Below are positions 51,770-61,758 of a DNA stretch of 64,000 nucleotides, piece by piece. The position numbers and the translations under genes were made by a program. Source of the DNA: Desulfosporosinus sp. (GTDB lineage: Bacteria > Bacillota > Desulfitobacteriia > Desulfitobacteriales > Desulfitobacteriaceae). The notes beneath the pieces are model-generated. The model was not told the DNA's origin, ran no database searches, and worked only from the letters and a program-made list of their open reading frames with translations. Each line of letters starts with the position of its first letter. Within the stretch, counting starts at the first letter, position 1. The stretch covers positions 1-64,000 of the forward strand of contig JAIMKP010000007.1 in NCBI GenBank assembly GCA_020692355.1. The letters are read 5' to 3'.

Positions 51770-52504
51770 ATGCAAGGTAAAGTCGCTTTGATTACAGGCG
51801 GAGGAACAGGGATCGGTCGGGCTGTCGCGCTCCGTTTAGCGCAGGAAGGAGCGTATATCGCCATTAATTATTCCCGTTCCGAACAAGAGGCCTTGACAGT
51901 CCAAAGCGAAGTTGAAGCCTTGGGCTGCAAGGCCAAGGCTTTTCGGGCGGATGTCGCTGATGATGCGGCGGTGCGCCCCATGATCGCGGCGGTGATTCAG
52001 GAGTTTGGACATCTCGATATCCTCGTGAACAATGCGGGGATGACGCATTTTGTGGAGCACGCTGATTTAGACGGGCTAAGAGACGAATACTGGGATGATA
52101 TGATTAACGTTAATGTCAAAGGCTTATTTCACTGCTGCAGGGCAGCTGCTCCAGAACTCAAAAAGCAGCGGGGATGCATCGTGAACATTACCTCCATCGC
52201 TGGGATTACGGGGTTGGGAAGTTCAATTGCCTATGCGGCTTCGAAGGCTGCCGCGATCAGCGTCACGAAGTCTTTGGCCAGGGTTTTGGCCCCAGAGGTA
52301 CGGGTAAATGCGGTGGCTCCTGGAATTGTGCAAACGCGCTGGGTCGCCGGACAGGACGAGCATATCAAGCGTCTGGCGGAGGGCACGCCGTTGGGCGGTG
52401 TGGCCGCTCCGGATGATGTGGCTGAAGTGGTGTTTTCCCTGATCGCCAATGCCCGTTTCGTAACCGGGCAAAATATCGTCGTCGACGGGGGGATGTTTAT
52501 TTAG
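51770..52504 (+). CDS. Short-chain dehydrogenase/reductase (FabG-like)
   Basis: NAD(P)-dependent oxidoreductase, 244 residues: cofactor motif TGGGTGIG, NNAG, catalytic Ser in NITSIAG and the YAASK tyrosine-lysine pair, GQNIVVDGG end. ATG at 51770 follows AAAAGGGGGA. It lies 110 bases after livF and may act on the imported compound; substrate unknown. Its stop overlaps the end of the convergent GDT1-like gene by 8 bases, without a terminator between them. Confidence 0.88.
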   Translation: MQGKVALITGGGTGIGRAVALRLAQEGAYIAINYSRSEQEALTVQSEVEALGCKAKAFRADVADDAAVRPMIAAVIQEFGHLDILVNNAGMTHFVEHADLDGLRDEYWDDMINVNVKGLFHCCRAAAPELKKQRGCIVNITSIAGITGLGSSIAYAASKAAAISVTKSLARVLAPEVRVNAVAPGIVQTRWVAGQDEHIKRLAEGTPLGGVAAPDDVAEVVFSLIANARFVTGQNIVVDGGMFI

Positions 52505-53063
52505 CGGACAAAGCGGAATAGAGGCCAACCAGCCCGAAACCGATAAAGATTAGGGCCGAGATCCACTTGACCAGCCGCTCTGGAATGCGCTTGCCGGCAA
52601 TGACCCCAACGTAAATCCCAAGGGCATCAGCTATGAGCATCCCGGTGGTTGTTCCCATGAGGGTGGCTAAGGGGTTTTCGTAACGGGCGGCTAAGGCTAC
52701 CGTGGCCAGTTGGGTTTTGTCTCCCATTTCAGCGAAAAAGAAAGCGATCGCCACGGTGATGACCGGGCTGATGACAAGCTTTCTTTTTTCTTCTCCCTCC
52801 AGGGTATCTCCGCGTATCGTCCAGAGCCCAAAAAAAATAAAGGATATTGCGGCAATAAGTTTTATGAGGCCGAAGTTGAGGGATGTGCCGAGAAAGGTTC
52901 CTAAAGCCACGGCCAGCGCGTGGTTTAGGATGGTCGCCCAGAGCACGCCCCAGAGTACGGAGCGCGCTGGGAAGCGAGTGGCCATCGCCATGGCCAGGAG
53001 CTGAGTCTTATCCCCCATTTCAGCGAGTACAACCATGATCATAGCACCCAGAAAAACACTCAT
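52497..53063 (-). CDS. TMEM165/GDT1-family Mn2+ exporter
   Basis: 188-residue membrane protein with two copies of the family signature EMGDKTQ (about residues 15 and 112) in a two-fold repeat of three helices each. Bacterial members export manganese. A yybP-ykoY-type riboswitch lies in its leader, which supports that role. ATG at 53063 follows AAAGGAG. Confidence 0.9.
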   Translation of the reverse strand: MSVFLGAMIMVVLAEMGDKTQLLAMAMATRFPARSVLWGVLWATILNHALAVALGTFLGTSLNFGLIKLIAAISFIFFGLWTIRGDTLEGEEKRKLVISPVITVAIAFFFAEMGDKTQLATVALAARYENPLATLMGTTTGMLIADALGIYVGVIAGKRIPERLVKWISALIFIGFGLVGLYSALSAK

Positions 53064-53199: not shown

Positions 53200-53305
53200 G
53201 CTCATTGGCTTAAGCCAACGGTGAAGCCAGGATTAAATCCAGCATTAAATCCAGCATGTTGACTTCACCTCCATCTCGTTCGATGGAGCTACTCCCCTTC
53301 AGTGC
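53160..53305 (-). ncRNA. yybP-ykoY manganese riboswitch (GDT1 leader)
   Basis: Minus strand: GAAGGGGAGTAGC at 53300-53288, GTCAACATGCTGG at 53259-53247 and GAGACCTTT near 53199, in the order and form of the yybP-ykoY class, which senses Mn2+. It precedes a Mn exporter, the classic target. By family precedent Mn binding favours read-through. Confidence 0.88.
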
Positions 53306-53330
53306 CAGTTTACTGGGAAACTAGTTCGGT

Positions 53331-53732: not shown

Positions 53733-53838
53733 GATCATTCCTCCTTTTTTGTTCACCACTAGATTGTGAGTAGTTTACGTATCTCGACCCCCTTGTCCGT
53801 ATTATAAGAGATTTTTGTTTACTTGACGACTATCCCCC

Positions 53839-53866
53839 TTGACAATTTTTTAGAATTTGATATGAT
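53839..53866 (+). promoter_or_regulatory. Promoter of the pspA leader
   Basis: TTGACA at 53839-53844 and TATGAT at 53861-53866 with a 16-base spacer, about 30 bases before the riboswitch. Confidence 0.75.
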
Positions 53867-53889
53867 AATGCCTGTAACAAGTGAATGTC

Positions 53890-54016
53890 TAAGCTCCGTG
53901 TTAAGGGGAGTAGCGAACGGCAGAAATGTCGTGGATAGCGTCGACATACGGCTTTGGACGAAGAAGCCCGGCCTATCCCCAGATGATGGTTGCAAGACCT
54001 TACCCAAAGGGTGAGG
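53890..54016 (+). ncRNA. yybP-ykoY manganese riboswitch (pspA leader)
   Basis: TTAAGGGGAGTAGCG at 53901, GTCGACATACGGC at 53940 and GCAAGACCTTACC at 53992 are the conserved segments of the yybP-ykoY class; TAAGG pairs with CCTTA to close the aptamer. The next + strand genes are pspA and a Tim44-like gene, not an exporter. Confidence 0.85.
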
Positions 54017-54025
54017 TCTTTTTGC
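53994..54025 (+). terminator. Riboswitch terminator before pspA
   Basis: AAGACCTTACCC/GGGTGAGGTCTT with loop AAA, then TTTG. The left arm is the aptamer 3' strand. Confidence 0.85.
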
Positions 54026-54041
54026 GTACAATGAACGCAAC

Positions 54042-54169
54042 AGACATCATCATTTGGGGGTGAGCGAGGGCAGGAACTTAATTAGGGTTGAAAGGAGGCT
54101 ATGCCGGAAGACTCGGTCACCTAAGCCGGGGACGAAAACTTTAGCCTAGATGAAACAAAAGGGATGTCT
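54042..54169 (+). ncRNA. Unidentified structured leader segment before pspA
   Basis: AGACATC at 54042-54048 can pair with GATGTCT at 54163-54169, enclosing about 115 G/A-rich bases with further short pairings. I cannot assign it to a known class. It contains AAAGGAGG followed by a seven-codon frame (MPEDSVT) with very short spacing. Confidence 0.35.
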
Positions 54170-54241
54170 TCAACGTATTACAAAAAGAGAAGTCATCTGC
54201 GGAAAACGAAAGGAATCGGAAAACGAAAGGGGAAATTTAAA

Positions 54242-54913
54242 ATGGGTTTATTCACGAAAGTAAAGGATTTACTGCAAGCGAATATCATGGATTTGGTAAA
54301 TAAGGCTGAGGATCCGGAGAAGATGCTGACCCTGTATGTGGAGCGGGCGACGGAAGAGGTGCGCAACTTCCAGATCCAAGTCAATCGTGCGGTTGCGGAC
54401 AAGATCCAATTGGAAGAGCGAATTAAGGAGCAGGAAAAAGAAATCGGACAGCGGACGGAACAGGCAACATTGGCGGTTCAGCAAAACCGGGATGATTTAG
54501 CACGTACGGCGCTGACCCTCAAAAAGCAAGCTGAACAGAGTTTGGCAGATTTTCAAGCACAACTGGCCGATCAGACTCAGGCCGTTGCGGATCTCCAGGA
54601 AAACCTGAGAATACTCACGGAAAAACTGGAGAAAGCCAAGATGGAGCGCAACAACCTGGTGATGCGTCAGCGCCGGGCCCAGACTATGAAAAAGGCTAAT
54701 GAAGCCGTTTCCGGGCTCTCGGCGCGGGATCCACTGGCTGACATTGATCGTATGAAAGATAGAGTGGATCGCATGGAAGCCGAAGCCAAGGCTTCGCGTA
54801 CACTCATCACGACTAATTCCATTGACGATCAGTTTGCGGAATTGGAGAAGAGTCGAGCAAACTCCGAAATTGACGATGAACTGGCCAAACTGAAGGAGAG
54901 TCTGCGCTCATAG
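54242..54913 (+). CDS. pspA: PspA/IM30-family membrane-stress protein
   Basis: 223-residue, almost wholly helical coiled-coil protein (GLFTKVKDLLQANIMDLVNKAEDP start is diagnostic) that coats and stabilises the inner face of the membrane. ATG at 54242 follows AAAGGGGA. It is preceded by an Mn-type riboswitch and followed after 57 bases by a membrane Tim44-like gene. Confidence 0.92.
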   Translation: MGLFTKVKDLLQANIMDLVNKAEDPEKMLTLYVERATEEVRNFQIQVNRAVADKIQLEERIKEQEKEIGQRTEQATLAVQQNRDDLARTALTLKKQAEQSLADFQAQLADQTQAVADLQENLRILTEKLEKAKMERNNLVMRQRRAQTMKKANEAVSGLSARDPLADIDRMKDRVDRMEAEAKASRTLITTNSIDDQFAELEKSRANSEIDDELAKLKESLRS

Positions 54914-61535: not shown

Positions 61536-61577
61536 CGTCATCTCCGCTGTTTCCTCTGCCCCAGGAAGGCTTTTCAG

Positions 61578-61730
61578 GCTTTAGGCAGGTCTCCTGGCTC
61601 ACGGTTCATCACAATCTGCGCCTTCCGGGCCGTTAAGGCCAGTGGCATCTGCAGAGGCTCACCGTACACAGTGGTGGGTCCGCGCCGGCTCGCCGGCTTC
61701 CCTATTCTCCCTTGCGGGCACCTAAAGCAA
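61578..61730 (-). ncRNA. Cobalamin riboswitch
   Basis: Minus strand: AGGTGCCCGCAAGGGAGAATAGGGAA at the 5' end (first segment), GCGGACCCACCACTGTG, GCCACTGG, CCGGAAGGC and the B12-box end GAGCCAGGAGACCTGCC, all in the order of the class. It should turn off cobT-cobU-cobS when adenosylcobalamin is plentiful. Confidence 0.95.
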
Positions 61731-61758
61731 AGATTTAATTGTGCCCTTAGGATAGCAT

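What the first reader, a model, noticed from the sequence alone, without database searches (positions are those of the whole stretch)
54042..54169. Possible second RNA domain in tandem with the Mn riboswitch
AGACATC (54042) pairs exactly with GATGTCT (54163), enclosing about 115 G/A-rich bases between the riboswitch terminator and pspA. It fits none of the classes I compared it with (M-box, ydaO, lysine, guanidine-I, THF, c-di-GMP). If conserved it would be a tandem, two-signal leader or a new aptamer. This is the window's best candidate for an undescribed regulatory RNA.
Basis: partly seen in the sequence, partly recalled or inferred. Interest (0 to 1): 0.6.

Follow-up and report, generated by a model that had tools for sequence, protein, structure and literature searches.

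The report
Ribosome-docking site in pspA leader
The stretch between a manganese-switch-like RNA and the membrane-stress gene pspA does not look like a second sensor RNA; its best-supported conserved feature is an extra ribosome-binding site, in related bacteria followed by a start codon and at once a stop codon, which probably protects or tunes the pspA message.

Summary
The 7-bp inverted repeat AGACATC/GATGTCT is exactly where reported, but one such repeat is expected by chance in a leader this size (0.73 expected, P 0.42), and the 128 nt do not fold unusually well. Of 101 genomes searched, only one sister species aligns beyond the upstream terminator. It keeps a closing stem, but in a shifted register: suggestive (P about 0.003-0.008), not covariation. 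No Rfam family matches. A tandem aptamer is not supported. Two other things are. (1) The upstream RNA is a diverged manganese (yybP-ykoY) riboswitch, far below Rfam's cut-off, present in 11 genomes of the order and upstream of pspA in 10. (2) The interval holds an upstream Shine-Dalgarno (GAAAGGAGG, 54090-54098; binds anti-SD better than pspA's own), followed in the window by AUG and a 7-codon ORF whose peptide is not conserved. In nine of 23 relatives' pspA leaders the counterpart is SD-AUG-UAA, a start codon followed directly by a stop (0.285 expected from shuffles), in three genera of two families. Best reading: a 30S/ribosome docking site like STAB-SD of Bacillus thuringiensis cry3A, blocking 5'-3' decay of the read-through pspA mRNA. 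Mechanism inferred; the link between the window's site and the start-stop sites is itself an inference.

The parts
53839..53866 (+). Sigma-70-type promoter of the leader (TTGACA, 16-nt spacer, TATGAT, TG before the -10)
   Evidence: 11 of 12 consensus matches; consensus match only
53898..54024 (+). Diverged manganese (yybP-ykoY-like) riboswitch plus its intrinsic terminator; P1.1 switch helix 53902-53906 with 53998-54002, whose 3' arm is also the 5' arm of the terminator
   Evidence: Model R1 finds it at 106-123 bits in 11 genomes of the order, canonical Mn riboswitches at about 28-52 bits; pairing counts 96.7% with 8 double-changed cells, 0/500 shuffles; RF00080 core aligned at 11.4 bits
53994..54023 (+). 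Intrinsic terminator (AAGACCTTACCC / GGGTGAGGTCTT, then T-run)
   Evidence: sequence; consensus structure
54042..54048 (+). 5' arm of the reported closing stem (AGACATC)
   Evidence: genus-level only
54163..54169 (+). 3' arm of the reported closing stem (GATGTCT)
   Evidence: sister species pairs CAGGCC/GGCCTG in a shifted register
54050..54058 (+). 5' arm of inner 9-bp stem (TCATTTGGG)
   Evidence: kept in the sister species with one A-U to G-U change
54145..54153 (+). 3' arm of inner 9-bp stem (CCTAGATGA)
54090..54098 (+). Upstream extended Shine-Dalgarno GAAAGGAGG (candidate STAB-SD / ribosome docking site)
   Evidence: anti-SD duplex -15.6 kcal/mol, best of the leader, against -12.0 for pspA's own SD; mean unpaired probability 0.69 against leader mean 0.48; identical in the sister species amid diverged sequence; alone P 0.075 by shuffles
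54101..54124 (+). Minimal upstream ORF ATG CCG GAA GAC TCG GTC ACC TAA (MPEDSVT*), 141 nt upstream of pspA; ATG only 2 nt after GGAGG
   Evidence: counterpart of SD-AUG-UAA in relatives; peptide differs in the sister species (MTGKTRLAKPGTKTFA*)
54242..54913 (+). pspA (PspA/IM30 family), with its own SD GAAAGGGG just upstream
   Evidence: Pfam PF04012 125.8 bits
54947..55933 (+). Tim44-like domain protein downstream of pspA (same strand); a similar Gly/Ser-rich protein follows pspA in several relatives
   Evidence: Pfam PF04280; reading frames in relatives

Best explanation
The leader of pspA has two modules. The first (53898-54024) is a diverged manganese riboswitch with a transcription terminator. 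The second, inside the reported stretch, is not an aptamer but a ribosome docking site: an extended Shine-Dalgarno about 150 nt upstream of pspA, usually followed by an AUG and a very early or immediate stop. Proposed mechanism: when Mn2+ lets RNA polymerase read through the terminator, the long 5' leader is cut or trimmed from its 5' end (RNase Y/RNase J1 in Firmicutes). The 30S subunit or initiating ribosome on the upstream SD stops the 5'-3' exonuclease, so the pspA mRNA persists, as STAB-SD does for cry3A at -129. With AUG-UAA the ribosome can start but makes no peptide, so it stays or rebinds there without translating into the leader. In the window's genus the site lies in a stem-closed region that leaves the SD open. 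Shown here: the SD, the start-stop conservation, the riboswitch-like RNA and its gene context. Inferred: that the window's SD is the counterpart of the start-stop sites, ribosome binding, protection from RNase J, and Mn2+ as the ligand of the first module.
For: Nine of 23 pspA leaders carry SD-AUG-stop in -220..-30, 0.285 expected from dinucleotide shuffles; three genera of two families (Paradesulfitobacterium-type g9, g20 of family f3, Desulfosporosinus-type g6); a GTG-TAA version in a third family (L100). Between these genera the next 50 nt are 18-40% identical, near random, while the SD region is 45-90% identical over all pairs. A model of the element scores above about 20 bits almost only at pspA leaders in 74 genomes, and the bare pattern is not enriched genome-wide over its reversed control. 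In the window the upstream SD is the strongest anti-SD match of the leader (-15.6 against -12.0 for pspA's own) and is more open than average. A held-out search with the element model places its best alignment in the window exactly on the SD-AUG (54082-54103), though at only 1.6 bits. Peptide not conserved between sister species while TTGAAAGGAGG is. Published precedent: STAB-SD at -129 of cry3A binds 30S and blocks RNase J1 without directing translation (PMC4113751); a strong SD without a start codon suffices to stabilise mRNA in Bacilli (PMC3997798); RNase Y turns over riboswitch leaders widely (PMC3542257).
Against: In the window the AUG is only 2 nt from GGAGG and the ORF has 7 codons, so the start-stop form itself is absent; the window SD alone is P 0.075 against shuffles. 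Two relatives of genus g3 have the SD but no AUG, and two riboswitch-bearing leaders (L004, L010) have no clear counterpart. The shuffle statistics treat related leaders as independent. No RNA-seq, ribosome profiling or decay data were available.
Confidence: 0.5

Rival explanations
1. The uORF is a translational sensor: ribosomes that start (and at once stop) at the upstream site change folding or re-initiation downstream and thereby pspA translation, for instance in response to slow termination or initiation.
For: AUG and stop, not only the SD, are kept in nine leaders; a start-stop codon pair is a natural sensor of initiation/termination speed. Bacterial uORF sensors are known (for example the topAI uORF of E. 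coli, PMC12121999, seen).
Against: Peptide, length and distance to pspA (-84 to -157) vary; pspA has its own good SD; no alternative structure shared by relatives was found; some relatives keep the SD and lose the AUG.
Confidence: 0.17
2. The stretch is ordinary, weakly constrained leader sequence; stem and SD in the window are chance in a purine-rich spacer.
For: Inverted repeat expected by chance, fold z not significant; window SD alone P 0.075; no start-stop in the window's genus; region aligns only to one sister species.
Against: SD identical in the sister species inside diverged sequence; significant start-stop conservation at the same place in relatives.
Confidence: 0.24
3. A genus-specific structured RNA closed by the reported stem, sensing a second signal.
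For: The sister species also forms a 6-7-bp closing stem at the same place despite substitutions in both arms; only 6 of 2187 (energy) or 18 of 2187 (length) alternative substitutions at the same positions do so; inner 9-bp stem kept.
Against: Two sequences only, shifted register, ordinary folding energy, no Rfam match, interior diverged with indels, absent from all other genera searched. A survey of tandem riboswitches found none with the Mn2+ class (PMC9481103).
Confidence: 0.07

Closest known systems
STAB-SD of Bacillus thuringiensis cry3A
   Same: Extended Shine-Dalgarno in a long 5' leader of a Firmicute, 100-160 nt upstream of the gene (-129 in cry3A), downstream of an upstream promoter/long leader; good match to anti-SD
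   Different: Here it lies behind a riboswitch terminator, and in many relatives is coupled to AUG-UAA or a short ORF; stabilisation not shown
hbs-type protection by initiating ribosomes (B. subtilis)
   Same: Ribosome at a 5'-proximal initiation site can block RNase J1 after an endonuclease cut (PMC3997798)
   Different: In hbs the site is the gene's own start; here it is a separate upstream site without a product
Manganese riboswitch RF00080 (yybP-ykoY), for the upstream module
   Same: GGGGAGUAGC loop 1, GUCGACAUAC-type loop 3, CCGGC, GCAAGACCUU, P1.1 helix overlapping the terminator arm
   Different: 11.4 bits only in the window (gathering 45); longer GAUAG/CUAUC P3 stem; controls pspA rather than a metal exporter
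Tandem riboswitches
   Same: Second element downstream of a riboswitch in one leader
   Different: No aptamer-like conservation in the second element; Mn2+ class not reported in tandem (PMC9481103)

Membership tests
STAB-SD (5' mRNA stabiliser) | Extended SD in the leader, far from the gene's own start, strong match to anti-SD | tested here: met
   GAAAGGAGG at 54090-54098, -15.6 kcal/mol, 143 nt upstream of pspA ATG; P 0.075 alone
STAB-SD (5' mRNA stabiliser) | 30S binding and stabilisation of the downstream mRNA against RNase J1 | not testable with these tools
   needs toeprinting, 5'-end mapping and half-lives
Start-stop minimal ORF (as in pspA leaders of relatives) | SD followed at normal spacing by AUG and immediately a stop | tested here: not met
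   met in nine relatives; in the window AUG is 2 nt from GGAGG and the ORF has 7 codons; R2 scores it 1.6 bits
RF00080 manganese riboswitch (upstream element) | score above Rfam's gathering cut-off of 45 bits | tested here: not met
   11.4 bits in the window, 18.1 in L010
RF00080 manganese riboswitch (upstream element) | conserved L1 GGGGAGUAGC, L3 GUC.RCAUAC-type loop, P1.1 helix competing with a terminator | tested here: met
   alignment to RF00080 consensus; P1.1 paired in 11 of 11 sequences, one double change
RF00080 manganese riboswitch (upstream element) | Mn2+ binding | not testable with these tools
   needs in-line probing or transcription assays
Tandem riboswitch / new aptamer (finding's claim) | conservation of sequence and structure beyond close relatives | tested here: not met
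   101 genomes: only the sister species aligns past the terminator into this stretch
Tandem riboswitch / new aptamer (finding's claim) | in-register covariation in the closing stem | tested here: inconclusive
   two sequences; shifted-register stem, 6-18 of 2187 alternatives as good; RNAalifold leaves the closing stem out
Known Rfam family (any) | match above threshold or E<=5 in 53770-54260 | tested here: not met
Leader peptide uORF | conserved peptide sequence | tested here: not met
   MPEDSVT* against MTGKTRLAKPGTKTFA* in the sister species, M* in relatives

The most novel reading that the evidence does not exclude
pspA leaders of Desulfitobacteriales-type bacteria carry a conserved start-stop element (SD-AUG-UAA, an ORF with no peptide) that works as a ribosome-parking stabiliser or sensor downstream of a diverged Mn2+ riboswitch, giving a two-input leader (metal plus ribosome availability); the window has a derived form with a 7-codon ORF.
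Probability: 0.35. Interest if true: 0.62.

Novelty: new variant of a known kind. Interest (0 to 1): 0.42.

Why it matters
If the element works as proposed, it would be a natural, peptide-free AUG-stop module in bacterial mRNA leaders, showing that ribosome initiation alone can be selected for as a 5' stabiliser or sensor. It would sit behind a variant manganese riboswitch that puts the membrane-stress protein PspA under likely metal control, a link for which I found no report in the papers searched. It also corrects the more exciting but weaker idea of a tandem aptamer.

Tried and rejected
Rfam at gathering and at E<=5 for the region: nothing. The hypothesis that the upstream element is an ordinary RF00080 member: the genome's best RF00080 match is elsewhere, at 53204-53312 (-), upstream of GDT1. 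N-terminal extension of PspA from ATG 54164: rejected, frame broken and ATG absent in the sister species. A general genome-wide role of SD-AUG-UAA: not enriched over reversed-pattern control. A wider family of the 128 nt: 101 genomes, only the sister species aligns over it. A second promoter between terminator and pspA: none found. A conserved uORF peptide: none. The R1-type riboswitch outside the order: in a draw of 398 genomes of the phylum strong hits only in G000 and G007. Attempts that failed: whole genome not available as a file; primary Mn riboswitch paper not held; one malformed alignment request gave nothing of use.

Full report
Observation. They enclose 114 nt between the terminator that ends at about 54023 and the pspA start at 54242. 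In dinucleotide shuffles of the 217-nt interval a 7-bp inverted repeat with a loop of 20 or more occurs 0.73 times on average, and at least once in 42% of shuffles. The folding energy of the stretch is unremarkable (z -1.2, -1.7; -0.25 for the sister species).

What the upstream element is. Rfam reports nothing at this place at its own thresholds or at E<=5. With only 137 bases searched, RF00080 (manganese) appears at 11.4 bits, aligned correctly over loop 1 (GGGGAGUAGC) and loop 3 (GCGUCGACAUAC); a relative, L010, scores 18.1. The genome's best RF00080 match lies elsewhere, at window 53204-53312 on the minus strand, upstream of a GDT1 cation exporter. A model built from the 11 relatives (R1) finds the element at 106-123 bits in 11 genomes of the order, and canonical manganese riboswitches at about 28-52 bits. 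A draw of 398 genomes of the phylum gave strong hits only in the window's genome and one family member. In 10 of 11 cases the gene downstream is pspA. The proposed P1.1 helix is paired in all 11 sequences with one compensatory change; the whole structure is paired in 96.7% of cells, with 8 double-changed cells against 3.0 in shuffles, 0 of 500 reaching it. The 3' arm of P1.1 is part of the terminator, as in the Lactococcus lactis Mn2+ riboswitch (PMC11087558). I read it as a diverged Mn2+ riboswitch; the ligand is inferred.

Is the second stretch an RNA domain? Of 101 genomes only the sister species G001 aligns over it. The best alignment has indels inside the stretch, most differences falling in the interior and in the stem arms. 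In G001 the reported register gives 5 of 7 pairs, but a shifted register gives CAGGCC/GGCCTG with pair probability 1.0. Keeping the substituted positions and trying all alternative bases, 18 of 2187 give as long a helix and 6 of 2187 as stable a duplex. The stem had been named on the window alone, so this is a fair prediction test, and it is suggestive; but it rests on two sequences and one comparison, and RNAalifold leaves the outer stem out. There is no evidence for an aptamer.

What is conserved there. In the pspA leaders of relatives the recurring feature is a strong SD with AUG and an immediate stop: GGAGGAAGAACATGTAA, GGAGGAAAAACATGTAA, GGAGAGAGAATATGTAA and so on. Nine of 23 leaders with PspA above 70% identity have it between -220 and -30, 0.285 expected. 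The carriers lie in genera g9, g20 (another family) and g6 (tree), and one GTG-TAA form is in a third family (L100). Downstream of the element, sequences of different genera are 18-40% identical; AUGUAA identity in that table is 100% by selection and is not evidence in itself. The pattern is not enriched elsewhere in these genomes over its reversed control, and a sequence model (R2) scores above about 20 bits almost only at pspA leaders. Several Desulfosporosinus-type leaders keep the start-stop element, and some a terminator-like stem, while the aptamer is gone. Desulfosporosinus paralogues that sit behind another gene lack the element (the upstream coding sequence is visible).

The window's own version. 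GAAAGGAGG (54090-54098) is the best anti-SD match of the leader, better than pspA's own SD, and is predicted open. It is followed 2 nt later by ATG and a 7-codon ORF; the sister species has 6 nt spacing and 16 codons, with an unrelated peptide. The held-out R2 search puts its best window alignment on exactly this SD-AUG, but at 1.6 bits, so membership in the start-stop group is not established. By shuffles the SD alone is P 0.075 in the window; the ten riboswitch-bearing leaders together give P about 9e-5, ignoring relatedness.

Mechanism. The simplest account that fits an SD that is kept, a peptide that is not, and a start codon that is often followed at once by a stop or is absent, is ribosome docking. 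Precedents: STAB-SD of cry3A sits at -129, binds 30S without directing translation and blocks RNase J1 (PMC4113751); strong SDs even without start codons stabilise whole mRNAs in Bacilli (PMC3997798); RNase Y turns over many riboswitch leaders (PMC3542257). I give this 0.5. A start/stop-based translational sensor gets 0.17, plain spacer 0.24, a genus-specific structured sensor 0.07.

Novelty. What remains is a new variant of known kinds: a diverged Mn riboswitch on pspA, coupled in relatives to a peptide-less start-stop element. I found no report of either in the papers searched, which cover open-licence papers only.

Noticed in passing
window 53204-53312 (-): A manganese riboswitch (RF00080, 40.7 bits, just under Rfam's cut-off of 45) upstream of a GDT1 cation exporter gene (52497-53063, -), about 0.6 kb from the pspA-type element on the other strand.
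   Followed up: partly
L006 (G054) 1500-1626: The pspA-type diverged Mn riboswitch occurs once without pspA downstream; the next long reading frames are a short one, then a protein that by eye resembles the YbjQ family (not tested).
   Followed up: no
L054, L052, L077 upstream of pspA: Desulfosporosinus-type leaders keep a terminator-like stem (ATGACCTTACTCGAGAGGGGTAAGGTTATT) where the riboswitch aptamer seems lost; L054 still scores 20.9 bits to the model.
   Followed up: partly
L146-L149 (four Desulfosporosinus-type genomes): AAGGAGGGGAATGTAATTG: a conserved SD-AUG-UAA directly before what looks like the TTG start of ribosomal protein L17 (MAYRKLGKNTGHRGAML); another possible start-stop site.
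   Followed up: partly
L089, L090, L091, L093, L101, just after the start-stop element: A further stretch AAGATTGCAAACGATCGCAAAA.GGATAAACTAAG is well conserved among these pspA leaders; function unknown.
   Followed up: no
window 61567-61740 (-): Cobalamin riboswitch, 100.5 bits.
   Followed up: no
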